A DNA stretch of 43,145 nucleotides. It comes from Candidatus Poribacteria bacterium. GTDB taxonomy: Bacteria > Poribacteria > WGA-4E > WGA-3G. Where the stretch lies: contig VXPE01000089.1 in the NCBI GenBank assembly GCA_009839745.1, positions 1-43,145 of the forward strand. The letters run 5' to 3'. Below the pieces are notes generated by a model. The model did no database searches, was not told the origin of the DNA, and saw only the letters and a program-made list of their open reading frames with translations. Below, one piece after another: positions 8,667-20,698 of the stretch (the stretch's first letter is position 1; every line of letters starts with the position of its first letter). Position numbers and translations under genes: made by a program.

Positions 8667-9662
8667 CTACACTCCCTGTAACGCCAACGTATCACTATGA
8701 TGACATGCCACCTGAACACCCGATGCTACCTGACGGAGTTCCGGGGTTTCCTGTTTGCATATATCGGTTGCGTATCGGCACCGCGGGTGAAAATAGCATC
8801 CAGGGGGCGGTTGAGACGGATCGGGGACATCCCCTTCAAGACGGATGTGTTCACGTTTGCGCTGCGCACTCGGATCTGGCAGTGGCACAGCGGATATTAA
8901 TGCCTCCGTATACGGATGCTTCGGCGATTGATAGAGGGTTTCAGCATCACTGATCTCCACGATTTTTCCGAGATACATGACAGCGACGCGGTCGCTGATA
9001 TGTTCAACGACACTCAGATCGTGCGCGATAAAGATATAAGAGAGTTGAAATTTTTCACGGAGCTCCGCCAGCAAATTGAGAATTTGTGCTTGGACGGAAA
9101 CATCTAACGCCGAGACGGGTTCATCTGCCACGATGAGTTCAGGTTGGAGTGCTAACGCCCGCGCAATACCGATACGTTGACGTTGCCCACCACTGAAGGC
9201 GTGTGGATATCGGCGCGTATCCTGCGATCTCAAACCTACAGATTCCAGTAACTCAACAATCCGGTCTTGAAGTGCTGTTCCTTTCTCGGTCCGGTTGACG
9301 CGCATCGGTTCTCCGACGATGTCTCCTACCGTCATCCGTGGATTGAGCGAGGCATGCGGGTCTTGGAAGATCATCTGGATACGTCTACGATACGGGCGCA
9401 TCTCATGGTGAGTCAACTTCGCTAAATCTACCTCTTCCTCACCGAAAACGAAACTCCCGCTTGTGGGTGGAATCAATCGGAGCAAGCATCGTCCTGCTGT
9501 GGTTTTCCCGCAGCCACTTTCACCGACGAGTCCGAGCGTCTCACCGCGTTGGACATCAAAATTGATACCATCGACCGCCTTGACATAACCGACAGTGCGT
9601 TGAAAGATACCTTTCTGTATCGGAAAATATTTTCTGAGATCGTTCACCTGAAGCAATTTCAT
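8667..9662 (-). CDS. Peptide ABC transporter ATP-binding protein, OppF/DppF type
   Basis: 331-residue ATPase. Walker [11 protein letters not shown]-loop [11 protein letters not shown], signature [14 protein letters not shown], Walker [13 protein letters not shown] and H-loop [11 protein letters not shown] are all intact. The C-terminal oligopeptide-transporter extension includes GCYFHPRC, whose cysteines in this subfamily can bind an Fe-S cluster. Its stop touches the start of the binding-protein gene, so translation is coupled. The ATG is preceded by one dispersed leader unit (9665-9747), AAGG lying about 12 nt away. Confidence 0.93.
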
Positions 9663-9664
9663 TC

Positions 9665-9747
9665 TTTAATTTTTCCTTGCGGTTCGGTCGGGTAGGTTTG
9701 AACTTTATCTGCCTCTCCGTAGACTCGCCCTCCGCTACGCTTACGGG
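9665..9747 (-). repeat. Dispersed leader unit, full copy (83 bp)
   Basis: In minus-strand sense it starts with CCCGTAAGCGTAGCGGAGGG and ends with GACCGAACCGCAAGGAAAAA plus TTAAA, directly before the ATG at 9662. Related full units: 17020-17104, 23661-23742 and 25463-25574. The end near the gene provides an AAGG that may serve as ribosome binding site. A second partial copy of the gene-proximal end is at 9771-9796. Confidence 0.65.
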
Positions 9748-9811
9748 CTAAGCACTTCAGTTTACCGATTTTTAATTTTTCCTTGCAGTTCGGTTAGGTG
9801 AGTTTGGCAAA

Positions 9812-9958
9812 TAATACCATTTCTGATTGAAATTGTAGCATAAACTTTTAGTTTGTGCTTGCTTGTAGCATAGACTGGCGAATGCGCGTGTGGCATTCGC
9901 AAAGACTCTGTGCACTCAGGTGCGGTTAATGCGATATAAACTTTTAGAAATGGTATAA
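9812..9958. mobile_element. Inverted-repeat element, copy 2 (147 bp)
   Basis: Left end TAATACCATTTCTGATTGAA is identical over 20 nt with copy 1; the right end CTTTTAGAAATGGTATAA also matches copy 1. It carries two GTAG-headed hairpins: GTAG 9835 with stem AAACT/AGTTT, and GTAG 9865 with a perfect 8-bp stem GCGAATGC/GCATTCGC (9878-9885, 9893-9900). No coding capacity. Confidence 0.7.
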
Positions 9959-10083
9959 TGTTCATCGACGTATATCCGCCTGCGTGTTTTTGCGAATCAG
10001 AATCAACGGTATGAGGTCTCCCGTGTGGGCTTCCCTGGGTATGAAGGTTCTCCGTGTGACATTCCCCGGGGCATTTCTGTGTA

Positions 10084-10160
10084 TTGTTGCAGGCTACAGG
10101 TTTGGGTAAAAAAAGAAACGTCAAAATTTCCAAACTCAGTAAAACTTAATCGAAAACCTG
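10084..10160. repeat. Copy A of a 77-bp imperfect direct repeat
   Basis: Starts TTGTTGCA(G)GCTAC and contains AAACGTCAAAATTTCCAAAC followed by TCAGTAAAA. The same order of words occurs at 12866-12942 in the upstream region of the ECF sigma factor gene. Both copies lie upstream of minus-strand genes that also have the dispersed leader motif, so they may be parts of one larger upstream cassette. Confidence 0.55.
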
Positions 10161-10197
10161 CGCGTAATGAAATGGAGCGCAGCCCAGGAGCAATAAA

Positions 10198-11220
10198 TTA
10201 AAAAGTATGAAGCCAGCATCGGACAGCGTGTCCGCGATTTTCCGTTTCTCCCATGAGTTCCGGCATCTGTTCACACGCTGGCATCCGCTCCGAACACCGG
10301 GCTTGAAACGAGCATCCGACCGGCAGTGTCAAGGGGTGTGGCACCGTCCCGGGTATGGAGGGCAAGGTTTTCTGCGGCGTCTTCCCGAGGACGGGTATGG
10401 ACTTTAGCAATCCCTGCGTGTAAGGATGCAGCGGATTATAGAAGATGTCATCAACCGTGCCTTTTTCGACGACGCGCCCTGCATACATGACAACGACTTC
10501 ATCCGCGAGATCGGCGATAACGCCGAGGTCGTGAGTGATGAGCATAATTGCCATCCCCATCTCCGCTTGGAGTTCCTGCATGAGACCCAGCACCTGCGCT
10601 TGGATGGTCACATCGAGAGCGGTCGTGGGTTCGTCTGCAATGAGGAGTGTCGGTGAACAACAGAGTGCCATTGCAATCATGACGCGTTGACGCATGCCAC
10701 CCGAGAGTTGGTGTGGGTATTCATCGACGCGTTGTGTAGGGGCAGGTATACCGACACGCGCGATCATCTCAATTGCGCGTTCACGTGCCGTCTTTTTATC
10801 GACCTGCTCGTGTAAGACAATCGCTTCAGCAATCTGGTTTCCGATCGTATAGACCGGATTGAGGGAGGTCATGGGTTCCTGGAAAATGATGGCAATTTCG
10901 TTGCCGCGGATTTCGCGCATCAATTCGCTTTTTGGTGCCACCTGTGCAATGTCTAACGGAGCCTCTTCACCGTTGCGATAAAATTGGATCTCACCGGCTT
11001 CAATACGTCCGGGTGACGGCACGAGTTGCAGCAGCGAGAGTCCAGTGATGCTTTTTCCGCAGCCACTTTCGCCGACAACCCCGACAGTCTGCCCGCGATC
11101 AATTTTAAAACTGACATCGTTCACGGCGTTGACGATACCATCGTCTGTTGGGAAAACCGTTTTTAAGCCTGAAATTTCCAAGAGCGGTTTTTCGTGGGAT
11201 GTATTTTGCACTGAAGCCAT
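10198..11220 (-). CDS. Peptide ABC transporter ATP-binding protein, OppD/DppD type
   Basis: 340-residue ATPase with Walker A GESGCGKS, Q-loop IFQEPMTSLNP, signature SGGMRQRVMIAMAL, Walker B LLIADEPTTALD and H-loop LITHDLGVIADLADEVVVMY. The C-terminal segment HPYTQGLLKSIPVLG...GCSFQARC is the oligopeptide-transporter extension. It should pair with the second ATPase at 8667-9662, although 535 bp of repeats separate them. A consensus promoter lies at 11331-11359, giving a leader of about 105 nt. AAAGG in AAAGGTAAAATTAAAAA lies upstream of the ATG. Likely first gene of the transporter operon. Confidence 0.93.
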   Translation of the reverse strand: MASVQNTSHEKPLLEISGLKTVFPTDDGIVNAVNDVSFKIDRGQTVGVVGESGCGKSITGLSLLQLVPSPGRIEAGEIQFYRNGEEAPLDIAQVAPKSELMREIRGNEIAIIFQEPMTSLNPVYTIGNQIAEAIVLHEQVDKKTARERAIEMIARVGIPAPTQRVDEYPHQLSGGMRQRVMIAMALCCSPTLLIADEPTTALDVTIQAQVLGLMQELQAEMGMAIMLITHDLGVIADLADEVVVMYAGRVVEKGTVDDIFYNPLHPYTQGLLKSIPVLGKTPQKTLPSIPGTVPHPLTLPVGCSFQARCSERMPACEQMPELMGETENRGHAVRCWLHTF

Positions 11221-11330
11221 TCTCTTTTTTTAATTTTACCTTTGTGCCGGTGTTGCAAGATTGCGATTTTGTGCCTAATTTTAATACCAATACAGGATCG
11301 TTATCCGTGAGGTATACCTAACTTTAGGCG

Positions 11331-11359
11331 ATTATACACAAAAAACGGTTGTGTGTCAA
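11331..11359 (-). promoter_or_regulatory. Consensus sigma-70 promoter of the transporter operon
   Basis: In minus-strand sense: TTGACA (11359-11354), a 17-bp spacer and TATAAT (11336-11331), a perfect match at both boxes. Predicted start near 11324, about 105 nt before ATG 11220. The spacer contains the inverted repeat ACACAA/TTGTGT, a possible regulator site. Confidence 0.8.
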
Positions 11360-11405
11360 TCTTTTTTGATGCTGGTAAGCGTAATTATGGAGCCTAAGGG
11401 CAAGT

Positions 11406-11430
11406 GTAGGCGCGGTTACTAAACCGCGCC
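11406..11430 (+). repeat. GTAG-headed hairpin, REP-like
   Basis: GTAG (11406-11409) leads into a perfect 9-bp stem GGCGCGGTT/AACCGCGCC with loop ACTA. The stem differs from the hairpin at 322-346 only by a compensating base-pair change. It lies between the transporter promoter and the end of the anti-sigma gene. Confidence 0.7.
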
Positions 11431-11492
11431 TGCGTTAACGGAAGGATTTTTAAAATGAAGGCACTCCGAGCAGCACAGGCGTGCTGGTATAC

Positions 11493-12218
11493 CTACAACT
11501 CGGTTTTAATGTGATTCCAAAATACGGTAAGTTTCTGACTTCCGACATTTTGGGAATAACTCACAACGCTGGCTTCACCTGTTTGTTCTTCATAATCTAC
11601 GGTATCGGTGGGCCACATCTTCGATGCATCCTGTGTTGGACTGAAGAAATAATCACGTGCATGCTGGACAGCAATCACAGGCTGTTTCGGTGTGCCCAGG
11701 TTCCCCACCTTTGTTTCAGTGCCTTTAACCAGTGCCCATGGAGACGGTGAGATCTTGACGTGTTCAAGCCGTGTCCTCTCCATTGCGGTTAGACCTAATT
11801 CGGGTTCCTGTGATTCCGTAAAGAATGCCAGTTTCATGACAAAACCGGAAGCGACGAGAAAGAAGAGTAAGACGACAGCATTGACGAACCGAGGCGAGAG
11901 ATCCACCTTCAATCGGTCAAGGCACCATGCTAACGGACCCGCGAAGAATGCAAGTTGCTGTTGTCGATGGAGTTGCCGAACGCTGCGTTGAATGTTCCCG
12001 ACTAATTCCGGCGGTGGCACCGGAGCCTCTGTCGTCTCCAGCACGCTTGCGGTGTGCCACAACGCTTCGTATTCCCTTTGGCAGCCTGGACAGGTCCGCA
12101 GATGCTCCAACAAGGTGCGTCGCGAAATTCCCTCAGCAGTCGGTTCTGCTGTCCGCGTCTCTCCGTTTAGAACGAGGTGTGGCAAATTGTTAAGAGTCTG
12201 TTTGCAATTCAAATTCAT
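11493..12218 (-). CDS. Anti-sigma factor with zinc-finger (zf-HC2-like) domain
   Basis: 241-residue membrane protein. The N-terminal domain has an upstream Cys (MNLNCKQTL) and H-x-x-x-C-x-x-C in LLEHLRTCPGCQREYEAL, the pattern of zinc-binding anti-sigma domains. One transmembrane helix (FVNAVVLLFFLVASGFVMKL) follows, then a periplasmic domain of about 95 residues I cannot name. It would hold the ECF sigma factor at the inner membrane until a signal arrives. The start codon ATG 12218 overlaps the sigma factor's TGA by one base (TGATG), so the two are translationally coupled. A longer frame to 12314 would overlap the sigma gene deeply and is rejected. Confidence 0.85.
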   Translation of the reverse strand: MNLNCKQTLNNLPHLVLNGETRTAEPTAEGISRRTLLEHLRTCPGCQREYEALWHTASVLETTEAPVPPPELVGNIQRSVRQLHRQQQLAFFAGPLAWCLDRLKVDLSPRFVNAVVLLFFLVASGFVMKLAFFTESQEPELGLTAMERTRLEHVKISPSPWALVKGTETKVGNLGTPKQPVIAVQHARDYFFSPTQDASKMWPTDTVDYEEQTGEASVVSYSQNVGSQKLTVFWNHIKTEL

Positions 12219-12790
12219 CAAGCCCCCCCTTCCAAGAGATAATATTTGCTCAATTTCCGCTTGAGATTTTTCAGTGCCTGATTCAACCGTGAAGCCACAG
12301 TGCCTTCCGAACACTTCAATATCTCAGCGATCTCCCGGTACTTGAGGTGCTGCATATAGTATAATATGACGACCTCGCGCTGTTTCTTCGGTAACCGACT
12401 GATGGCACCTTGAACCATTTCGTTCTGTTCTGTATTGACCACTGCGCCTTCAGGGGATCCGGTTTCAGAAACCGCGCCATCTATTTCCGCTTCTCTGGTA
12501 TAAGCGGTAAGTTTGCGTTCATGCGATTGCGATTTACGGATATACTGCTGGCAGGTATTGATGCCGATACTATAGAGCCATGTCCCGAACTGCGATTGAA
12601 ATCGAAACGCTTTAATTGACTTGTATGCCTCTAAAAACGTCTCCTGTGTCGCGTCAGCGGCATCTTCGGGATTGCGGAGCATTCGGTACGCAAGCCCATA
12701 AATCTTTGAATGATGCCGATTGACGAGTTCGTTGAACGCCTCGGCATCGCCCTCCACTGTCTGGTGGACGTAAACATCATCAGGAATCAT
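12218..12790 (-). CDS. ECF-family RNA polymerase sigma factor
   Basis: 190-residue sigma-70 family protein with only regions 2 and 4. Region 2: AYRMLRNPEDAADATQETFL and FRFQSQFGTWLYSIGINTC. Region 4: LPKKQREVVILYYMQHLKYR then EIAEILKCSEGTVASRLNQA, the DNA-recognition helix. It should direct RNA polymerase to promoters under control of the anti-sigma factor encoded immediately downstream. The ATG follows a dispersed leader unit (12791-12851) with AAGG about 14 nt upstream. The stress signal and target promoters cannot be read from the window. Confidence 0.93.
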   Translation of the reverse strand: MIPDDVYVHQTVEGDAEAFNELVNRHHSKIYGLAYRMLRNPEDAADATQETFLEAYKSIKAFRFQSQFGTWLYSIGINTCQQYIRKSQSHERKLTAYTREAEIDGAVSETGSPEGAVVNTEQNEMVQGAISRLPKKQREVVILYYMQHLKYREIAEILKCSEGTVASRLNQALKNLKRKLSKYYLLEGGA

Positions 12791-12851
12791 TTTTTTAATT
12801 TACCTTGCGGTTCGGTCAGGTGGGTTTGGGCTTTTACCTGCCTCTCCGTAG
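12791..12851 (-). repeat. Dispersed leader unit, partial copy
   Basis: In minus-strand sense it reads CTACGGAGAGGCAG ... CCTGACCGAACCGCAAGGTA then AATTAAAAAA, ending at the sigma factor ATG. It is closely similar over about 60 nt to the unit upstream of the OppF-type gene. Confidence 0.65.
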
Positions 12852-12865
12852 AACCGCTTGCGCCG

Positions 12866-12942
12866 TTGTTGCAAGCTACTGCTTTGGTTTAAGGATAGAA
12901 ACATCAAAATTCACAAACCCAGTAAAAACGCATCAAAAACCG
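12866..12942. repeat. Copy B of a 77-bp imperfect direct repeat
   Basis: TTGTTGCAAGCTAC ... GAAACATCAAAATTCACAAA then CCCAGTAAAAA, parallel to 10084-10160. Copy A and copy B are in the same orientation relative to their downstream minus-strand genes. Confidence 0.55.
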
Positions 12943-13112
12943 CAATTGATTTCCCCTTCACTTTTTTCAAAAGCGGCAAACGCGCCCATAAATTGGGACA
13001 TTATTTGTTTTGTTGCGTCGGCATCAATTTTCCTTCATTTTTTTTCAAGAGCCCCAAAAAAGAGAGAAACCCTTTACTAATTTTCTATGACTGATTGATT
13101 AAGTCTTGAACG

Positions 13113-13679
13113 TTATACGGATTCGCACGCCTCACAGACGAAGGCGAAACGTTTAGTGCCGTTTGTCTCAAACTCGGTCTCGTAATCATAACTGACCGGC
13201 ACGTTTGACTCGCCACACCAATCACAGCGTCCAGCAAAGGTATGTGCTTTCTGTCCCAACAACACTTCCTTCTGCTCCTCAACTTTTCGGGTGGCAGCAA
13301 TGAGGTCGAGGGCATTTTGGCGGAGCCTCGGATCCGTTTCCTCTTTAGCGATCCTTTCAAGGAGCGGTTGCAGTCTCGGATCGTTCGGATTCCCGCCGTC
13401 GTCGAGTGTATGCCACGCGGCTTTTCGGACGCGCAGATCGGGATCAACCAAGCCTTTGTAGAGCGCCACCCACACTTTGTCAATGCTTTTCCGAACGTGG
13501 CAGGGACAGAGGTTGTCCATCGCCTCGACGCGATCATCGGCGTTGGAAGAATACGCGAGGGAGAGGTAGTATTCGACCTCATTACCGCGCAGTCGGTCTT
13601 CACCCCGGCGATGTGCTTTCTTCTGATATTTGTTCATGCCTCTCAGTTTTTTTGCCTTCGGAATTCCATGTTTTGGCAT
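13113..13679 (-). CDS. HEAT-repeat-like protein with C-terminal zinc-binding cysteines
   Basis: 188-residue predicted cytoplasmic protein of unknown role. The N-terminus is strongly basic (MPKHGIPKAKKLRGMNKYQK). The middle (about residues 40-130) has helical pairs typical of HEAT-like repeats, for example DPDLRVRKAAWHTLDD and DPRLRQNALDLIAATRK. The C-terminus has two Cys pairs, CDWC and CEAC, about 36 residues apart, forming a likely zinc ribbon. The start ATG 13679 has GGAGG six nt upstream. An overlapping frame at 13085-13603 lacks these features and is a shadow. A nucleic-acid or protein-binding adaptor role is inferred only from architecture. Confidence 0.75.
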   Translation of the reverse strand: MPKHGIPKAKKLRGMNKYQKKAHRRGEDRLRGNEVEYYLSLAYSSNADDRVEAMDNLCPCHVRKSIDKVWVALYKGLVDPDLRVRKAAWHTLDDGGNPNDPRLQPLLERIAKEETDPRLRQNALDLIAATRKVEEQKEVLLGQKAHTFAGRCDWCGESNVPVSYDYETEFETNGTKRFAFVCEACESV

Positions 13680-13901
13680 CTGTTTCCTCCAAAAAATATA
13701 ATTCTGAATCGCGGATTGTCGCGAATTTATCAGATTTCGCGGATTTTAGCATCCTCTTATTGCTTCAACTTTGACTTTGAGATCGGGTCTTCGGATTCTG
13801 TAAAATGAGGGTAGACATCCCTTCCGCCTGTGGGATTTTGAGCAAGTCGCGAAGCGGCTGTTCCTGTGGGTTATTATAGGTGGCTGGACACTTTACCGCC
13901 A

Positions 13902-14246
13902 TCAACTGAAGAGGGCAATCAGGGCGATAATCACTGCCGCAATTGCTGCCCCTGTCGTGAAGACAGTCAATATTCTACCGCTGCCTTCCTGCTTCCCCTC
14001 CAATTTTCCTTTGACCCATCCGACATCGTGCTTCAATTGCCCGACGTGGGTTTCAATAGCATCGAGTCGTTTTTCTAAGCGTTCGTTATCCTTTTCCCTT
14101 TGTGTTTCAATGGCATTAAGGCGTTTTTCTAAACGCTCGTTATCCTCTCTTCTCTGTGTCTCAATGGCATCGAGTCGTTTTTCTAAACGCGATTCAATTC
14201 CCGACAAGGCTTCAAAAATTCTGTCCTGAAAATCTTGCTCTGTCAT
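13902..14246 (-). CDS. Coiled-coil protein with C-terminal membrane anchor
   Basis: 114-residue protein: a short N-terminal helix, a coiled coil of 18-residue repeats (units of the form LDAIETQRREDNERLEKR), and a C-terminal transmembrane helix FTTGAAIAAVIIALIALF. The repeats are visible in DNA as 54-bp units (14055-14190). Similar small proteins with coiled coil plus tail anchor are common and have no assigned function. The start has GGGAGG eight nt upstream. A promoter is at 14293-14322, so this is a monocistronic gene. Confidence 0.75.
   Translation of the reverse strand: MTEQDFQDRIFEALSGIESRLEKRLDAIETQRREDNERLEKRLNAIETQREKDNERLEKRLDAIETHVGQLKHDVGWVKGKLEGKQEGSGRILTVFTTGAAIAAVIIALIALFS
14055..14190. 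repeat. 54-bp tandem repeat (about 2.5 copies)
   Basis: Units 14055-14108 and 14109-14162 plus a partial 14163-14190, sharing AATGGCAT...TTTTTCTAA and CGTTATCCT. They encode the 18-residue coiled-coil repeat. Copy number may vary between strains. Confidence 0.8.
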
Positions 14247-14292
14247 TTCTATCGCCTCCCTTGGTACCTCATTTCCATACGATGCATAGTGT

Positions 14293-14322
14293 AGTTTAGC
14301 ACGATTTGCCTGTTAGAATCAA
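14293..14322 (-). promoter_or_regulatory. Sigma-70 promoter of the coiled-coil gene
   Basis: Minus-strand TTGATT (14322-14317), 18-bp spacer, TAAACT (14298-14293) with TGC before it (extended -10). Predicted start near 14286, leader about 40 nt. Confidence 0.5.
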
Positions 14323-14402
14323 CTGAAAATCAACGGGGGTGTAAATATTTTGTCAATTGTCTGAATCGCGGATTGACGCGGAGGACACGGAGGACGCGGA
14401 TT

Positions 14403-14618
14403 TTAAGAAAGGTCTTCAAATGTGAAGTGCCCTTCATTTTCTTTTCTGGACTGCCTTGGAAACGAAATACCACTGACAGGTTCTTCGGGTTCATAACTGA
14501 TGAGTGCCTCCAAAAGGGATCTTTCACTGTTGCCTTGCGGACTCGTTTCAACAGCTAACAAAGCAGCGTCAATAGAACCTTCAAGTATGCTTTTAGTTTT
14601 TCCTTTCCGTAACTTCAT
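14403..14618 (-). CDS. Small protein, possible truncated DUF3644-like N-terminus
   Basis: 71 residues, third gene of the PIN cassette. Its ATG overlaps the stop of the 124-residue gene by four bases (ATGA), which supports translation. The segment KSILEGSIDAALLAVE resembles the N-terminal stretch I associate with DUF3644 proteins (usually several hundred residues), after which this protein diverges into an acidic tail. It may therefore be a truncated relic or an unrelated small partner. The identification is weak. Confidence 0.45.
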   Translation of the reverse strand: MKLRKGKTKSILEGSIDAALLAVETSPQGNSERSLLEALISYEPEEPVSGISFPRQSRKENEGHFTFEDLS

Positions 14619-14989
14619 AGCTGTTTGAAATGCTGCGTGATAAACCTCAATAATCCGTAGCCTTTGAGTTCATCTGCTAAGATCTTAAATCCAAGTTCAT
14701 AGATTTCAATGTCGGTGAGTTCTAACATCCCTTCGCGCCATGCGGCAATCCGCTCGGCTTTGAGGCGTTCCTCCTTTTTCCGCGATGCTGCTCCCTGTTG
14801 GATACGTTTCGCAAGCGTCCGGATATCCGGGTCTTTGTCCATCCATTTATGCCGTTCAGCAGTATAATCATAGGTGCGCGGTTTACAGTTTTGAAGGAAT
14901 TGTGTTGTATACGCGGAGCCGAGTTGTTTTGTAAGTTCTTTAATGCCGAGTTCATAAATCTCAAGATCCGTCATCTGGAAAATGTCCAT
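14615..14989 (-). CDS. 124-residue protein with internally duplicated motif, possible PIN partner
   Basis: The same motif occurs at both ends: MTDLEIYELGIKELTKQLGS (from residue 6) and LTDIEIYELGFKILADEL (from about residue 91). Between them are DYTAERHKWMDKDPD and a charged helix rich in Lys, Arg and Glu. I do not know a named domain for it, though short proteins with LG...FLQ...DYT.ERH.W occur in cyanobacteria-like genomes. Its start (ATG 14989, GGGAGG nine nt upstream) lies 29 nt inside the PIN gene and its end overlaps the next gene by four nt. The tight overlap with a PIN gene suggests an antitoxin or accessory subunit, but this is inferred. Confidence 0.65.
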   Translation of the reverse strand: MDIFQMTDLEIYELGIKELTKQLGSAYTTQFLQNCKPRTYDYTAERHKWMDKDPDIRTLAKRIQQGAASRKKEERLKAERIAAWREGMLELTDIEIYELGFKILADELKGYGLLRFITQHFKQL

Positions 14990-15452
14990 TTCCTGTCACC
15001 TCCCGTAACCATGTTTCTGGATTTTCGACCTGGATGTGAAGCCGTGCTTGGGCCCGTTGTGATCTTCTGAGCAGCCTATCATCCGTTGTTAGGAAAATGT
15101 CAGCCTCGCCACTTTCAGCACAGGCAAGATGCAAGGCATCTTTTTCCTTAAAACCTAACGATTCAAGTTGTAAACCTCTTGATATTTCCTCTGCTCCGAC
15201 AGAGATAATCTGATGCGTAAGCATTAACAAGGTTTCGACCTGCGTGCGTTCTTCCAAATCCGGGGTTTGCTCAACTTCATCTATTATGACATCGCTGGCA
15301 ATCCAATGCCAATCCCCGCGAAAGCAGTAAGTGAGAATTTGATGAGTAGCTTTGGCTTCCTCAATAACACGTGTTTGAGTTGGTGGATCAAAAAGTCGGC
15401 TCAAACAACACGTGTCAAGATAAATTTTCCAGAATGGCGAAAAAGCTTGCAC
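14961..15452 (-). CDS. PIN-domain protein (VapC-like putative ribonuclease)
   Basis: 163-residue PIN-like protein. The acidic residues expected of the nuclease site are present: Asp in KIYLDTCCLSRLFD, Glu in SDVIIDEVEQ, Asp in KEKDALHLACAESGEADIF, and Asp-Asp in LTTDDRLLRR. PIN toxins cleave tRNA, rRNA or mRNA; here only the fold is supported. The usual Asn after the first Asp-Thr is Cys. The start is GTG 15452. The usual small antitoxin gene is not upstream; instead two overlapping genes follow. A 12-bp palindrome sits directly before the start codon. Confidence 0.78.
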   Translation of the reverse strand: MQAFSPFWKIYLDTCCLSRLFDPPTQTRVIEEAKATHQILTYCFRGDWHWIASDVIIDEVEQTPDLEERTQVETLLMLTHQIISVGAEEISRGLQLESLGFKEKDALHLACAESGEADIFLTTDDRLLRRSQRAQARLHIQVENPETWLREVTGNGHFPDDGS

Positions 15453-15454
15453 GC

Positions 15455-15466
15455 GTCTATATAGAC
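15455..15466. promoter_or_regulatory. 12-bp palindrome GTCTATATAGAC, candidate operator
   Basis: Perfect palindrome three nt before the PIN gene start. Its centre TATATA could be a -10 box, so a regulator bound here would block transcription, as in autoregulated toxin-antitoxin operons. No good -35 is visible, so the promoter part is uncertain. Confidence 0.5.
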
Positions 15467-15653
15467 CTCGTTTGATAATTTTCTATCTTGGTATGTATCT
15501 CCCAGAAGGCACATCCACAACTTCACACGCAGGCGCGTGCTCAAGTGCCCCAAGGAGATTCTAACAGGTTTGGCTCATAGGGTCAAGGAAAAATTGAGGC
15601 TCACGATGTGCCCTCTTGCAACTCTTTACTCTATTAGAACTTGCGAAGTGAGG

Positions 15654-16961
15654 CTACCATTTTCTCGCTTGGACAAGTGCTTCGACTTCGTCAATTTCTT
15701 TCGGGACACCGTCCGTCAGCACTTCACACCCGTCCTCTGTGATGAGGATATCGTCCTCTATGCGGACCCCGATGCCGAGATACGCCGGGGGCACATCCTG
15801 TGTATCGTCAGCGACGTAGAGTCCCGGCTCAATGGTCATCACCATGCCGGGTTGGAAGGTTTTGAAATCACCGTTGGATTCGTGGACGCAATTGACATCG
15901 TGGACATCTAAACCGAGCATGTGTCCGATCCGGTACATGTAAAACTGTCGGTATGCCTCTTTCTTTATCAATTTCTTTGCTTTTCCCTTGAGGAGACCGA
16001 GACTGAGCATGCCTTCCGTCAATAACTCAATCGACTTTTGGTGCGGTTCGTCGATGGAAACCCCCGGACAGATAGCATCAATAATGGCAGTGTGTGCGTC
16101 AAGAACAATCTGATAAATCTCTCGCTGCGCTTCAGTGAAGGTGCCGTTCGCGGGAAAGGTTCGGGTCACATCGCCAGAATAGTGACCGTATTCTGCCCCT
16201 GCGTCAATGAGGACGAGGGTTTCGTCTTCAATCCGGCAGTCATTCGTTGTATAGTGGAGCGTTGTCGCGTTTCCGCCACTCGCAACGATAGTGGGAAAGG
16301 CGACACCGTTTGCGCCGTTCATACGGAACGTGGATTCAACGAGTGCTTCCAACTCGTATTCATACAACCCCGGACGCACCGCTTTCATCGCGGCGACGTG
16401 TCCGGCTACGGTAATCTCCGTCGCCAATCGGGTCCGCTGCAATTCCGTCTCATTTTTGATTAACCGCAGCTCGCTGAGAATAGGACTCGGATCCACAAGC
16501 GTATCAAACCCCTTGCCCGATCGGATGCGTGACCTGACCGACTGCGTGAAACGGGCGAGAATTTCACCGTCGACATCCGCATTGGCGCCGAGCGTATAGT
16601 AAAGCCGTTCGGCACCTTGTAGGTATTTCCCGATTTTTTTACTGAATTTCTCTATCGGATAGGCTTTATCTGCCCCGTAGCGTTTACGAGCGTCCTTAAC
16701 GCCAACCCGCTTACCGTTCCAGATTTCCGCCTGCTTATCTTTCGGACGCACGAACAGGATATATTGATGTTTCGGATGATCGGGCGCGATGACACAGATC
16801 GACTCTGGTTCTTCAAACCCCGTAAGGTAATAAAAATTCGGATCCGGACGATAATTATACTCGGTGTCGTGATTCCAGATTGCGGGGGGTGTACTGGCGA
16901 AGATAGCGACCCCGCCACGCCCCATCTTTTCTATAAAGGCTTCGCGATTTTGCTTATACAA
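15654..16961 (-). CDS. pepP: Xaa-Pro aminopeptidase (M24B family)
   Basis: 435-residue metallopeptidase that removes an N-terminal residue linked to proline. The N-terminal creatinase-like domain (about 1-170) contains YYLTGFEEPESICVI; the C-terminal pita-bread catalytic domain has the metal ligands in order: two Asp in IDAGAEYGHYSGDVTR, His in GHMLGLDVHD, Glu in MTIEPGLYV, Glu in GVRIEDDILIT. The length matches E. coli PepP (441). Translation probably starts at TTG 16961 with AGGAG seven nt upstream. Cytoplasmic, no signal peptide. It fits with the peptide importer and M20 peptidase in the window as peptide catabolism. Confidence 0.92.
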   Translation of the reverse strand: MYKQNREAFIEKMGRGGVAIFASTPPAIWNHDTEYNYRPDPNFYYLTGFEEPESICVIAPDHPKHQYILFVRPKDKQAEIWNGKRVGVKDARKRYGADKAYPIEKFSKKIGKYLQGAERLYYTLGANADVDGEILARFTQSVRSRIRSGKGFDTLVDPSPILSELRLIKNETELQRTRLATEITVAGHVAAMKAVRPGLYEYELEALVESTFRMNGANGVAFPTIVASGGNATTLHYTTNDCRIEDETLVLIDAGAEYGHYSGDVTRTFPANGTFTEAQREIYQIVLDAHTAIIDAICPGVSIDEPHQKSIELLTEGMLSLGLLKGKAKKLIKKEAYRQFYMYRIGHMLGLDVHDVNCVHESNGDFKTFQPGMVMTIEPGLYVADDTQDVPPAYLGIGVRIEDDILITEDGCEVLTDGVPKEIDEVEALVQARKW

Positions 16962-17019
16962 ACTATTGACTCCTCATAAAGCGATGGATCCATGGAAGAA
17001 ATGAAAACGAAAACCAAGC

Positions 17020-17104
17020 CCGTAAGCGAAGCGGAGGGCGACGCTTGAGAATGACACGTCAGCGTCCTAATCCACGTCGTTTACCCGCAAGGTAAAATTA
17101 AAAA
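17020..17104 (+). repeat. Dispersed leader unit, full copy (85 bp), convergent orientation
   Basis: Plus-strand CCGTAAGCGAAGCGGAGGGC at 17020 and CCGCAAGGTAAAATTAAAAA at 17085-17104. Here it points toward the 3' end of the AspA-like gene and touches its stop codon, so the unit is not tied to start codons only. Confidence 0.6.
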
Positions 17105-18091
17105 TTAGAGATATTTGATCGGTGTGCCGATTTTGCCGATGATACCACCGCTGGCGACCATTGGATAGACGGGTTTTGCCCAGAAAATACCATCGACTGG
17201 CGCACGGATAGACTCCCGAACCTTGCCAAACACATCGCAGATGTCCGCTATAGGTTGATACATCGCAAGTCGATCATACAATTCCGCCTTGTAATAGACG
17301 AATCCGCCTTCGTTGCTGAGGACGGGTACAAACTTTTTAACAACGATCTGTCGGTCAGGAATCTGTGGTGTTCCGGCAATGAATTTATAATATTGTAAAA
17401 CATTGCGCACACCGCGCACCCCCTTTTCGATGCTCTCTGCATCCCATCCGTGGGTGCCCCCTAATTCGGGATCAATTGTTGGAATGCCGACCTCTGGTGC
17501 CGCTTGCGCGAGTTGTCCTTGGGGTCCCTTCTGATTGAGAATATGTCCTATGCCGAAAACGCGTGCGAGTTCAAGACAGGCACCGTGAAGCGCGTGTTTC
17601 TCGTCAACCCGCACCCGGACCTCGTCGATCATCGGGTGTACCCCACCTTGGTGCAGATCAAGACAATAATCGGCTTGCTGAATGGCGCGTCGAAAGAGAT
17701 GATATGCTGTCCGTTCGCTCGATGTTCCATCGCGCCTACCGGGAAAACAGCGGTTCATTTTACGGTTGTCTACAGGGCTGAGCGCCTGTTTCGTATGAAA
17801 CGCGTGAAAATTGACGAGGGGGACGGCGATAATCTTCCCATATAACTGCTCTGGTGTGATCGTAGAGAGCACTCTGTGAACAACGGCGATTCCGTTGAGT
17901 TCATCACCGTCACTAATCGCTTGTATGTAAAGTGTTTTGCCGGGGTACGTCCCGTTGATTAGCACAACAGGCAATCGGACAGCCGTTCCATCGGGCATAC
18001 TGCCGACTTTGATATGTCCTTCTGTTCGGGTTCCGGGTTCGGCGACTAACTGTCCAACGACCAATTGGCTACGGCGAATTTTATTCCTCAT
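17105..18091 (-). CDS. AstE/AspA-family (M14-like) hydrolase
   Basis: 328-residue protein of the succinylglutamate desuccinylase/aspartoacylase family, zinc enzymes that cleave amide bonds of acylated amino acids. Seen: YIQAISDGDELNGIAVVHRV (first metal motif), DNRKMNRCFPG, and CLDLHQGG (second His). The usual His-x-x-Glu of the first motif reads Asp61-Gly-Asp-Glu64, so one zinc ligand is changed. A C-terminal beta-rich part ends in PMVASGGIIGKIGTPIKYL. I choose ATG 18091; a TTG at 18127 overlaps the -35 box. The start has no ribosome binding site, and the promoter suggests a leaderless mRNA. Divergent from rpiA. Confidence 0.82.
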   Translation of the reverse strand: MRNKIRRSQLVVGQLVAEPGTRTEGHIKVGSMPDGTAVRLPVVLINGTYPGKTLYIQAISDGDELNGIAVVHRVLSTITPEQLYGKIIAVPLVNFHAFHTKQALSPVDNRKMNRCFPGRRDGTSSERTAYHLFRRAIQQADYCLDLHQGGVHPMIDEVRVRVDEKHALHGACLELARVFGIGHILNQKGPQGQLAQAAPEVGIPTIDPELGGTHGWDAESIEKGVRGVRNVLQYYKFIAGTPQIPDRQIVVKKFVPVLSNEGGFVYYKAELYDRLAMYQPIADICDVFGKVRESIRAPVDGIFWAKPVYPMVASGGIIGKIGTPIKYL

Positions 18092-18098
18092 AACGGTT

Positions 18099-18127
18099 AT
18101 TTTACCAAAATCAGCGAAATAAGTCAA
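18099..18127 (-). promoter_or_regulatory. Promoter placing +1 at the start codon (AspA-like gene)
   Basis: Minus-strand TTGACT (18127-18122), 17-bp spacer, TAAAAT (18104-18099) preceded by TGG. The predicted transcription start, about 18092, coincides with ATG 18091, which would give a leaderless transcript. Confidence 0.65.
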
Positions 18128-18193
18128 ATCATTAGCCGTCAGGGGTCAAGGTTTAGATTCGGAGATCCCTCCTACTGGATTTCAGATTATCTC

Positions 18194-18222
18194 TTGATTT
18201 GAACACGATTTTCTGGTAAACT
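18194..18222 (+). promoter_or_regulatory. Promoter of rpiA with almost no leader
   Basis: TTGATT (18194-18199), 17-bp spacer, TAAACT (18217-18222) with TGG before it. Predicted start near 18229, four nt before ATG 18233; an alternative TTATAC at 18222-18227 would put it on the ATG. No Shine-Dalgarno sequence is present. Confidence 0.6.
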
Positions 18223-18232
18223 TATACGTATC

Positions 18233-18922
18233 ATGAACACAGAAAATCAGAAAAAAATTGCTGCAGAAAAAGCGACAGAGCGCGTCCGATCCGGCATGGT
18301 TGTGGGATTAGGGACGGGTTCCACCGTTTACTATGCCCTCCTGAAACTCGGTGCGATGGTGCGGGAAGGGCTTGATATTATAGGGATTCCGACCTCTGCA
18401 GGCACTGAAAAAATTGCGACAGCACAACAGATACCCCTCGCGACGCTCGCTTCACATCCGAGTCTCGATCTGACGATTGATGGTGCCGATGAGGTAGACA
18501 AAGACCTCAACCTCATCAAAGGTGGCGGCGCGGCACTCGTCAGAGAAAAAATCATCGCCAACGCATCTAAAGAGATATTGATTGTTGTCGATGAAAGCAA
18601 AGTATCACGTGTCCTCGGCACGACCTTTCCACTTCCTGTCGAAATTGTGCGATTCGGGTGGGAGGCAACACAAACCGAAGTCAACCGGATTTGTGGAAAA
18701 TCAACGTTACGTCTTTCACCGGCACAGGATGGAAACCAGTTTCCTCTTATCACTGACAACGGAAACTATATCCTCGATTGCCACTTTGATGGGATTCCTG
18801 CGCCTGAAGCGGTTGAGTTGCAACTGAACAACATCCCCGGCGTAGTGGAGAATGGGATATTTGTGAACCGTGCCGACAAAATCATCATCGGCACGCCTTC
18901 CGGTATCCGGTATATGGGCTAA
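18233..18922 (+). CDS. rpiA: Ribose-5-phosphate isomerase A
   Basis: 229-residue cytoplasmic enzyme that interconverts ribose-5-phosphate and ribulose-5-phosphate in the pentose phosphate pathway. Signatures: VGLGTGSTVYYALLKLG (phosphate-binding loop), TIDGADEVDKDLNLIKGGGA (active-site Asp residues), LVREKIIANASKEILIVVDE and FPLPVEIVRFG. The length is normal for RpiA (about 220-235). Translation probably starts from a nearly leaderless mRNA. The next gene begins five nt after the stop, so they share a transcript. Confidence 0.96.
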   Translation: MNTENQKKIAAEKATERVRSGMVVGLGTGSTVYYALLKLGAMVREGLDIIGIPTSAGTEKIATAQQIPLATLASHPSLDLTIDGADEVDKDLNLIKGGGAALVREKIIANASKEILIVVDESKVSRVLGTTFPLPVEIVRFGWEATQTEVNRICGKSTLRLSPAQDGNQFPLITDNGNYILDCHFDGIPAPEAVELQLNNIPGVVENGIFVNRADKIIIGTPSGIRYMG

Positions 18923-18927
18923 CACCA

Positions 18928-19785
18928 ATGGTTAAATACCAAATCTTATTCCTCCTGTTCCTTCTTGCCTTTATCACGATCTCACATCCAGCCAGCGGTG
19001 AAATATTTACAGAAAGCGGATTGGTGGACCTCCCAACGGGGAATGTGCTGAAACACGGGATATTCGGGGCAGGCACATATATGGCGTTCCAGCATTCCTC
19101 GGAAACCCTGCGCGCAATTGGAGAGAATAACGTCTTTGGCAACGCTATTGCGATTCGTCTCAACTTCGGACTGTTTGATCGGGTTGGGGTCGGGTTAAAA
19201 TACCTATGGAACGAACACGACGCTGCATCCTTCATCGATTGGACTGCGACCCTCAAGGTTCAACTTTTAAAAGAACAAGAGGTTGGCACGATTCCGAGTG
19301 TAGCGATAGGGATCGAGACGCTCAGCGATAGACTTTTTTCGGGAAATTCGGAAGCGGAAGAGAACGAAAATCCCGCAGCGTTTCTTGCCATCAGCAAGAC
19401 CTTTAATCTGCCACGGATTCATCAGTTCTCTGGACACCTCGGCGTTGGTACCCAGCGGTTTGCTTTTGGAGAAAGTCCTATCGGTCTGTTTGTCGGACTG
19501 AGCAAAGAATTTCAACCGGCTTTCGCGAGGGGCGACATCACGATGAACTTGGAATTCGATGGTGCAGGTGTGAACGCGGGGATGCGGTATATCACCCCAA
19601 GCGGACTTCAGGTCGCCCTCGGTGCCGAGACCTTGAACACCCCAGACGAATTGCGGTATCTTGCCGCTGTTTCGTGGACAAACGAGCGACTGGTCGATCA
19701 GATCAATGAAACGAGAGGGTTGATTAAACGCGCGACAGAACTCGCTATTGAAGCGAAACGCTCGGTTTCACGGGGTTCTAAATAG
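18928..19785 (+). CDS. Predicted outer-membrane beta-barrel protein (YjbH-like)
   Basis: 285-residue protein with a signal peptide (KYQILFLLFLLAFITISHPASG) and a body of alternating strands such as GIFGAGTYMAF, AIAIRLNFGLFDRVGVGLKY and VGVGTQRFAFGESPIGLFVG, as in outer-membrane barrels. The early motif ESGLVDLPTGNVL recalls YjbH-type proteins. The role is unknown. Co-transcribed with rpiA by spacing (5 nt), though the functions look unrelated. The C-terminal tail (about 265-285) is helical and charged. It ends 10 bp from the convergent OmpA-like gene. Confidence 0.65.
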   Translation: MVKYQILFLLFLLAFITISHPASGEIFTESGLVDLPTGNVLKHGIFGAGTYMAFQHSSETLRAIGENNVFGNAIAIRLNFGLFDRVGVGLKYLWNEHDAASFIDWTATLKVQLLKEQEVGTIPSVAIGIETLSDRLFSGNSEAEENENPAAFLAISKTFNLPRIHQFSGHLGVGTQRFAFGESPIGLFVGLSKEFQPAFARGDITMNLEFDGAGVNAGMRYITPSGLQVALGAETLNTPDELRYLAAVSWTNERLVDQINETRGLIKRATELAIEAKRSVSRGSK

Positions 19786-19795
19786 CAAGCAGAAA

Positions 19796-20698
19796 TTATT
19801 GAGACCCCTTCGTCTCAATAGATTCCATCACCTTTTGGAGGGATGTCAGTAGTTCAGATAAGAAGTCTTGGGGTGGCACGAGTATAATTTCGATTCTCCG
19901 ATTCTTGGCTTTCGCTTCGGATGTGTCGGCGGTATCTATCGGTTGGTAGAACGCGTATCCTGTCGCCGCCAAGCGTTGGGCATCGACCTCCGCATGCACC
20001 TGTAAATATTTTACGGCAGCGATTGCGCGTTCGGTTGAGAGGTTCCAGTTTCGGAGTTCGGAACCACCAATAGGAGCGTCATCGGTATGCCCCTCGACCC
20101 GCACCGCATAATCAGCATAATTCGTATTCAGTAGAACTTCCTCAGCGATTGCATCCAGAAGTGCCTTCCCCTCTGTGCTTAGGATCGCACTGCCTGTCTC
20201 AAACAGAATTTTCCCTTTAACATCGAGTTTCAACCTTCCAGCGTCATCCAATACTGCCCCGACTGTATCTTTAAATTTTTCTTGGATAGCAGCGATTGAA
20301 CGCTGTGATTGTACCCGAATTCGTTGTAATTCCGATTCAATCTCGGTCAGTTTCGCGCGGAGCCCCTCTTTTTCGCGTTCAAGCGCGTTTTTGTCCTGTT
20401 GGAGCGCGTTCCGCTCGGCGGCAATTTTCCGAGCGGCTTCGCTTTCATTTTCTAATATTTCCTGCGTTTGGCTGAGTTCTGAACGCGTTTTTTTCAGCGC
20501 GCCTTGGGTTTCGGTTAACTTTTTCTCCAGATCGGCTCTTGCGGTTTCAGTTCTCCGCAAGGTGGCATGGGTAGCAGCCAGTTCCGCCTGTGTCTGTTCG
20601 AGTTTGCCCGAAGTTGAATGGAGCATCACCGCCAGAACGATGGCAGCGATAACGGCAATACAGATAGATATAATTACGAGGATTCCTTTTTTAGACAT
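19796..20698 (-). CDS. OmpA/MotB-domain protein with membrane anchor and coiled coil
   Basis: 300 residues: N-terminal transmembrane helix (ILVIISICIAVIAAIVLAVM), a long coiled coil (about 30-145), and a C-terminal OmpA-like peptidoglycan-binding domain with ILFETGSAIL, VRVEGHTDDAPI, NWNLSTERAIAAVKYL and AKNRRIEIIL. The anchor and domain order match inner-membrane proteins that reach the cell wall, such as MotB relatives, but no MotA partner is nearby and the charged plug features are absent, so a motor role is not supported. The start overlaps the RNHCP gene end by eight nt, suggesting coupling. Confidence 0.85.
   Translation of the reverse strand: MSKKGILVIISICIAVIAAIVLAVMLHSTSGKLEQTQAELAATHATLRRTETARADLEKKLTETQGALKKTRSELSQTQEILENESEAARKIAAERNALQQDKNALEREKEGLRAKLTEIESELQRIRVQSQRSIAAIQEKFKDTVGAVLDDAGRLKLDVKGKILFETGSAILSTEGKALLDAIAEEVLLNTNYADYAVRVEGHTDDAPIGGSELRNWNLSTERAIAAVKYLQVHAEVDAQRLAATGYAFYQPIDTADTSEAKAKNRRIEIILVPPQDFLSELLTSLQKVMESIETKGSQ

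What the first reader, a model, noticed from the sequence alone, without database searches (positions are those of the whole stretch)
14403..15466. PIN-domain gene with two overlapping downstream genes and a palindromic operator: toxin-antitoxin-like cassette
Seen: PIN gene, then a 124-residue gene overlapping it by 29 nt, then a 71-residue gene overlapping that by 4 nt; a perfect 12-bp palindrome GTCTATATAGAC lies three nt before the PIN start. The 124-residue protein holds the motif TD(L/I)EIYELG twice. Known: VapBC operons normally have the antitoxin gene first and bind palindromes in their own promoter. Inference: an inverted-order module in which the duplicated protein is antitoxin or adaptor.
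Basis: partly seen in the sequence, partly recalled or inferred. Interest (0 to 1): 0.65.

Follow-up and report, generated by a model that had tools for sequence, protein, structure and literature searches.

The report
PIN toxin with an unnamed antitoxin
The locus is very probably a two-gene toxin-antitoxin module in which a PIN-type RNA-cutting enzyme is followed by a small protein of a family that no curated database names; the same pair occurs in bacteria of several phyla, while the third gene and the "operator" are a deletion scar and a chance sequence.

Summary
The two-gene core is real and conserved. PIN (15452-14961) plus the 124-residue partner (14989-14615) is a toxin-first module. 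All 75 intact Poribacteria PINs with enough flank, and all 80 best genome-wide hits (Chloroflexota, Cyanobacteria, Proteobacteria, Planctomycetes and others), carry the partner next to the PIN or fused to it. The reverse fails: 51 of 119 sampled partner genes have only a broken PIN or none. That asymmetry is what a toxin and its antidote predict.

The partner family has no match in Pfam, NCBIfam, PADLOC, PHROGs or PDB. Elsewhere it is a single unit of about 70 aa with the motif (G)(D/N)Y(T/S)xxRHxW. In Poribacteria the unit is duplicated, but 108 of 109 scorable two-unit proteins keep the motif in only one unit. In AlphaFold models the motif segment scores low alone (pLDDT 65-78) and high when joined to PIN (87-96). 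Natural fusions exist.

Two parts of the finding fail. The 71-aa ORF is a deletion scar joining the start of a DUF3644/PDC-S19 gene to the end of hmaB; in relatives this site holds an Hma defence locus. The palindrome is absent from the closest relatives and no commoner than chance. Toxicity and neutralisation are inferred.

The parts
14961..15452 (-). PIN-domain gene, predicted RNase toxin; acidic residues D13, E59, D105 and D124/D125 kept
   Evidence: Pfam PF01850; D13/E59/D105/D124-125 conserved in the alignment; the PIN part of a homologous model matches VapC structures at Z about 9-11; dN/dS 0.13-0.23 against relatives
14615..14989 (-). 124-aa partner, predicted antitoxin: one complete unit plus one truncated unit
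   Evidence: adjacent to every intact PIN sampled; no relevant match in Pfam, NCBIfam, PADLOC, PHROGs or PDB; dN/dS about 0.09-0.31 against relatives
14843..14872 (-). presumed toxin-binding motif YDYTAERHKW (partner residues 40-49), with Arg46
   Evidence: Arg in 138 of 138 distinct motif segments (pattern allowed R, K or W there); motif kept in only one of two units in 108 of 109 scorable proteins; pLDDT low alone, high in the PIN-joined model
14618..14716 (-). second, truncated unit (partner residues 92-124) without the motif; possible pseudo-dimer half
   Evidence: repeat TDIEIYELG; pLDDT about 90 in the window-partner model; alignment
14403..14618 (-). 71-aa ORF: deletion scar (start of a DUF3644/PDC-S19 gene joined to the 3' end of hmaB), not a module component
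   Evidence: 14547-14619 is 86-90% identical to the start of PDC-S19 genes; 14384-14551 is 72-80% identical to hmaB 3' ends
15455..15466 (.). 12-bp palindrome GTCTATATAGAC, most likely chance
   Evidence: not conserved in relatives; palindrome count at expectation
13902..14246 (-). coiled-coil repeat ORF; in relative G066 it lies between hmaB and an hmaC-like gene, so probably a leftover of the lost Hma locus
   Evidence: L225 5629-6048, blastn window 13888-14549 to L225 6062-5351

Best explanation
A toxin-first, type II-like toxin-antitoxin module. Step 1 (inferred from family): the PIN protein is a metal-dependent RNase that would harm the cell if free. Step 2 (shown as gene structure, inferred as function): the partner is read from the same operon through an overlapping start, so it is made whenever PIN is made. 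Step 3 (inferred from conservation and models): the partner's helical N-terminal hairpin self-associates, in Poribacteria with its own second copy, while the segment (G)(D/N)Y(T/S)xxRHxW plus the helix after it folds onto PIN and its conserved Arg neutralises the acidic active site, as Arg64 of VapB does in Shigella VapBC. Step 4 (shown): the partner can outlive the PIN but an intact PIN is not found without a partner, which is the selection expected of toxin and antidote. Autoregulation through the palindrome is not supported. In the window the module is what remains at a site that carries an Hma defence locus in relatives.
For: Two further G000 copies; C111 has the same 29-nt overlap and C85 has PIN broken by an insertion with the partner intact. 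Phylum scan: 104 of 150 listed PINs paired at first look; the 46 others were fetched, and all but L192 (PIN cut at a contig end) and L196 (PIN remnant) carry a divergent, reversed or fused partner. Intact PINs with partner 75/75; partner genes with PIN fragments 23 or without PIN 28 of 119. Genome-wide 80 loci: partner adjacent in 79 and fused in the last. Natural PIN-partner fusions in L108/L053, L069, L185, L188. Motif in one unit only, 108 of 109. pLDDT of the motif segment 65-78 alone against 87-96 joined to PIN, pTM 0.85. Order switches about 4 times on the PIN tree. VapB Arg64 mechanism: PMC3384007.
Against: No toxicity or rescue data. No DNA-binding domain or conserved operator was found, whereas most characterised type II antitoxins are repressors. 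The first helices of the unit are weakly modelled there (69-77). The two models differ in protein and alignment as well as in the presence of PIN. The 51/119 figure comes from a sample partly chosen for lacking PIN.
Confidence: 0.86

Rival explanations
1. The partner is a specificity or activity subunit (adaptor) of a PIN RNase acting on phage or stress RNA, not an antidote; the pair works as one enzyme complex.
For: Obligate association, natural fusions, location inside Hma, Septu-like and restriction loci, partner fused to TPR and trypsin-like domains.
Against: Partner genes persist with PIN broken or gone (51 of 119 sampled) and still under purifying selection (dN/dS 0.09-0.44), while no intact PIN with full flanks lacks the partner; an adaptor should be lost together with its enzyme. 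The single conserved Arg/aromatic motif resembles VapB inhibitory tails.
Confidence: 0.09
2. An ordinary VapBC operon with a rearranged VapB antitoxin of a known DNA-binding family that autoregulates through the palindrome.
For: PIN fold like VapC; palindrome next to the start codon.
Against: No RHH, AbrB, Phd, MerR, DUF433 or UPF0175 match in Pfam or NCBIfam; palindrome not conserved; order opposite to VapBC in 119 of 140 tree members.
Confidence: 0.03
3. A three-gene cassette in which the 71-aa protein is a functional third component.
For: 4-nt ATGA overlap with the partner.
Against: No homologue next to other modules; the ORF is about the first 25 residues of a DUF3644/PDC-S19 protein joined to the last 50 or so of HmaB.
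Confidence: 0.01

Closest known systems
VapBC (PIN toxin with RHH, AbrB or Phd-type antitoxin)
   Same: PIN toxin with the VapC fold and acidic active site; small partner with a conserved Arg plus aromatics, as in the tail of Shigella VapB (PMC3384007)
   Different: Toxin gene first; partner shows no match to any DNA-binding antitoxin family; no conserved operator; the motif is followed by a helix; the partner unit is duplicated in Poribacteria
PIN with DUF433/COG2442, UPF0175/COG2886, DUF104/COG2880, COG1753 or MerR antitoxins (Makarova et al. 2009, PMC2701414)
   Same: Same kind of inference: a small conserved partner gene beside a PIN gene, common in cyanobacteria and Chloroflexi
   Different: No match to these families by Pfam; the partner is not in that paper's list of PIN neighbours
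Toxin-first TA systems (higBA, hicAB, mqsRA, rnlAB)
   Same: Toxin gene precedes antitoxin gene (PMC4803016)
   Different: Different toxin and antitoxin families; not PIN nucleases (established knowledge)
Hma defence locus (HmaA helicase, HmaB methylase, HmaC ATPase; PADLOC, PMC8565338)
   Same: In G062 and G069 the PIN-partner pair lies between hmaA and a Septu-like ptuAB plus hmaB; in G066 the partner lies between hmaA and hmaB
   Different: The pair is a passenger, not part of the Hma definition; in the window and in G065 the Hma genes are gone

Membership tests
Type II toxin-antitoxin module (general) | Two small adjacent co-directed genes, conserved as a pair across phyla | tested here: met
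Type II toxin-antitoxin module (general) | One gene belongs to a known toxin family | tested here: met
   PIN PF01850, VapC fold
Type II toxin-antitoxin module (general) | Toxin not retained without antitoxin, whereas antitoxin may stand alone | tested here: met
   75/75 intact PINs with partner; 51/119 sampled partner genes without intact PIN; exceptions are a contig-end PIN and a PIN remnant
Type II toxin-antitoxin module (general) | Toxin inhibits growth and antitoxin restores it by protein-protein binding | not testable with these tools
   needs expression assays; the models only suggest contact
VapBC | PIN-domain toxin with the acidic active site | tested here: met
VapBC | Antitoxin gene upstream of toxin gene | tested here: not met
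   toxin-first in the window and in 119 of 140 tree members; antitoxin-first in 17, fused in 4
VapBC | Antitoxin with a recognised DNA-binding domain (RHH, AbrB, Phd, HTH) | tested here: not met
   no such match by Pfam or NCBIfam; at fold level nothing was found, which is inconclusive
VapBC | Palindromic operator in the promoter, bound by the complex | tested here: not met
   the window palindrome is not conserved and is at chance frequency; binding itself is not testable here
VapBC | Antitoxin tail places an Arg in the PIN active site | tested here: inconclusive
   conserved Arg and confident motif in the PIN-joined model, but no coordinates to measure contacts
PIN antitoxin families DUF433, UPF0175, DUF104 | Sequence membership in the Pfam family | tested here: not met
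   no such match at E up to 1
Hma defence system | hmaA, hmaB and hmaC genes present | tested here: not met
   only an hmaB 3' scar remains in the window; the genes are present at the same site in relatives

The most novel reading that the evidence does not exclude
A widespread, undescribed antitoxin family (a helical hairpin plus a (G)(D/N)YxxxRHxW clamp) controls a distinct PIN RNase subfamily as a defence-island module. In Poribacteria it diversified by unit duplication with one clamp kept, order reversal, and fusion to TPR, trypsin-like or methylase domains that could act as sensors releasing the PIN toxin on phage attack.
Probability: 0.2. Interest if true: 0.75.

Novelty: new variant of a known kind. 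Interest (0 to 1): 0.55.

Why it matters
It gives a testable antitoxin identity to a family of "hypothetical proteins" found beside PIN genes in cyanobacteria, Chloroflexota, Proteobacteria, Poribacteria and others, and so a way to annotate many PIN proteins now called only "PIN domain-containing". The kept-once motif points to the residues that should do the neutralising. The locus also shows a TA pair outlasting the defence locus it sat in: the Hma genes were deleted while the pair stayed. Limits: only open-access papers were searched, so an earlier mention in a large prediction set (for example TASmania) is not excluded.

Tried and rejected
Palindrome as operator: rejected on conservation and count. 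Third ORF as component: rejected as a deletion scar. Known families for the partner: Pfam, NCBIfam, PADLOC, PHROGs and PDB sequences gave nothing relevant. Fold match for the partner model: Foldseek found nothing with E below 6 and VIA nothing with Z of 2 or more; this does not show a new fold. First attempts at a joint PIN-partner alignment (A5, A6) were misaligned and discarded; A7 with three bridging rows was sound. The search for related loci with the partner profile failed for lack of a conserved stretch, so the PIN profile was used. The genome search could not be centred on a cyanobacterial plasmid. The PADLOC hit of the PIN to PDC-M11A (E 0.005) was judged a generic PIN match. Literature: no paper found describing the partner.

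Full report
OBSERVATION. The window (G000:C89) lies in a Poribacteria genome: contigs of its held relatives match records titled Candidatus Poribacteria by length. On the minus strand lie PIN (15452-14961), a 124-aa partner (14989-14615, 29-nt overlap) and a 71-aa ORF (14618-14403, 4-nt overlap). The palindrome GTCTATATAGAC is at 15455-15466.

CONSERVATION OF THE PAIR. G000 has two more partner genes: at C111 with an intact PIN and the same 29-nt overlap, and at C85 with the PIN broken by an insertion that shares translated sequence with an ORF at window 9762-10133. Scans of 85 genomes of the phylum found partner matches in 59 and PIN matches in 56. Of 150 listed PIN places, 104 paired at once, 94 toxin-first and 10 antitoxin-first. 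The other 46 were fetched. With a more sensitive profile they carry a partner beside, upstream of or fused to the PIN, except L192 (PIN 5' end cut off by a contig end) and L196 (a short PIN remnant). Even PINs at only 29-33% identity (L198-L203) have it. In the fetched Poribacteria loci 75 of 75 distinct intact PINs have a partner, but of 119 partner genes 23 stand beside PIN fragments and 28 beside none. Some loci were fetched because they lacked a PIN, so 51/119 is not a rate; the 75/75 is the informative side.

BREADTH. A genome-wide scan with the PIN profile gave 80 best loci, 51 of them outside Poribacteria (Chloroflexota, Cyanobacteria, Proteobacteria, Planctomycetota, Latescibacterota, Armatimonadota and others by record title). 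The partner is adjacent in 79, and the eightieth (L108) is a natural PIN-partner fusion. Outside Poribacteria it is always toxin-first with a single unit of roughly 65-80 aa. Five plasmid records also carry the unit. In four cyanobacterial ones it follows a PIN or PIN-like gene, and in Planktothrix it lies between type I restriction genes.

ANATOMY OF THE PARTNER. The unit is two helices (TDxEIYELGxxxLxxxLG...RF), then (G)(D/N)Y(T/S)xxRHxWL, then a helix. Arg is present in 138 of 138 distinct motif segments, though the search pattern itself required R, K or W there. The window protein has one complete unit and a second cut off before the motif. Of 112 distinct two-unit proteins, 93 have the motif only in unit 1, 15 only in unit 2, 1 in both and 3 in neither by the pattern used; of these three, two show one-letter variants (YDHTAER, YDYAAER) and one is cut by a locus end. 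Selection for one motif per protein fits one toxin-binding site per protein (inference). Both genes are under purifying selection.

MODELS. AlphaFold2 on an in-frame read-through of a Chloroflexi pair (L126, TAG read as Gln; alignment A7) gave mean pLDDT 90.6 and pTM 0.85. The motif and following helix score 87-96, the unit's first helices 69-77. The window partner alone gave the reverse: hairpin 85-96, motif region 65-78. This is consistent with a motif that orders on the PIN, but the two runs differ in protein and alignment, and no coordinates could be examined. The PIN part matches VapC structures at Z about 9-11. The partner alone has no structural match, which is inconclusive. In Shigella VapBC, aromatics and Arg64 of VapB plug the VapC active site (PMC3384007); the motif has the same ingredients (analogy, not proof).

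SITE HISTORY. In G066 the same site (aminopeptidase P on one side, HEAT-repeat gene on the other; flanks 95-97% identical) holds hmaA, the partner (its PIN gone), hmaB, a coiled-coil ORF and an hmaC-like gene. In G062 and G069 the order is hmaA, PIN, partner, Septu-like ptuAB, further genes and hmaB. In G065 the pair stands without Hma. The family calls by PADLOC profile were made on the G062 genes and the G066 hmaA end; the others are by sequence likeness. In the window, 14547-14619 is 86-90% identical to the start of a DUF3644/PDC-S19 gene and 14384-14551 is 72-80% identical to the end of hmaB, meeting at a 3-base shared GAA. The "third gene" is therefore the scar of a deletion that removed the Hma genes, and the coiled-coil ORF 13902-14246 is another leftover. 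Hma is a candidate defence system often found with Septu (PMC8565338).

PALINDROME. It is unique to the window. Relatives whose PIN is 85-86% identical read GTTTAGAGAGAC and GTTTAGATAGAC, and both paralogues lack it. Seven perfect 12-bp palindromes in the window is no excess. With no DNA-binding domain recognised in the partner, autoregulation by this site is unsupported.

VARIATION. Gene order switches about four times on a PIN tree of 140 rows (few columns; at least one switch forced by strong branches). Partners are fused to TPR repeats (L015), to a trypsin-like domain plus TPRs (L099) and to an N6_N4 DNA methylase (L037).

LITERATURE AND NOVELTY. Makarova et al. 2009 list the PIN-associated antitoxin families known then; this one is not among them. 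No profile in the four protein libraries names it. Only open-access text was searched, so "undescribed" means not found here. It is filed as a new variant of a known kind: a PIN toxin-antitoxin module with an unnamed antitoxin family and toxin-first order. It works like VapBC; it is not filed as VapBC because gene order, DNA-binding domain and operator were tested and not met. Toxicity, neutralisation and the RNA target remain to be shown.

Noticed in passing
G000 relatives: L224, L225, L229, L230 against window 9000-20000: The site between aminopeptidase P (15654-16961) and the HEAT-repeat gene (13113-13679) is a defence hot spot in Poribacteria: Hma with Septu-like ptuAB or HepT-like passengers in some genomes, only the PIN pair in others.
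   Followed up: yes
L037:2-2866 (G069:C158): The partner is fused in frame to the C-terminus of an N6_N4 DNA methylase; no PIN match was listed there.
   Followed up: partly
L099:2937-4646 and L015:45-1277: Partner units fused to a trypsin-like peptidase plus TPR repeats, or to TPR repeats alone; possible sensor versions of the antitoxin.
   Followed up: partly
L002:1871-2289 (G000:C85) and window 9762-10133: A repeat element whose translation reads PFLKVYIALTAPECT...VYATSKHKLKVYATISIRNGI interrupts the PIN gene at C85 and also occurs in the window; looks like a miniature mobile element.
   Followed up: no
window 13902-14246: Coiled-coil ORF with near-identical repeats (ERLEKRLDAIETQREKDN); a homologue lies between hmaB and an hmaC-like gene in G066.
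   Followed up: partly
L185 (G027:C33) 1139-2967: A natural PIN-partner fusion followed by three more partial PIN-tail plus motif copies in a row, a local amplification of the antitoxin end.
   Followed up: no
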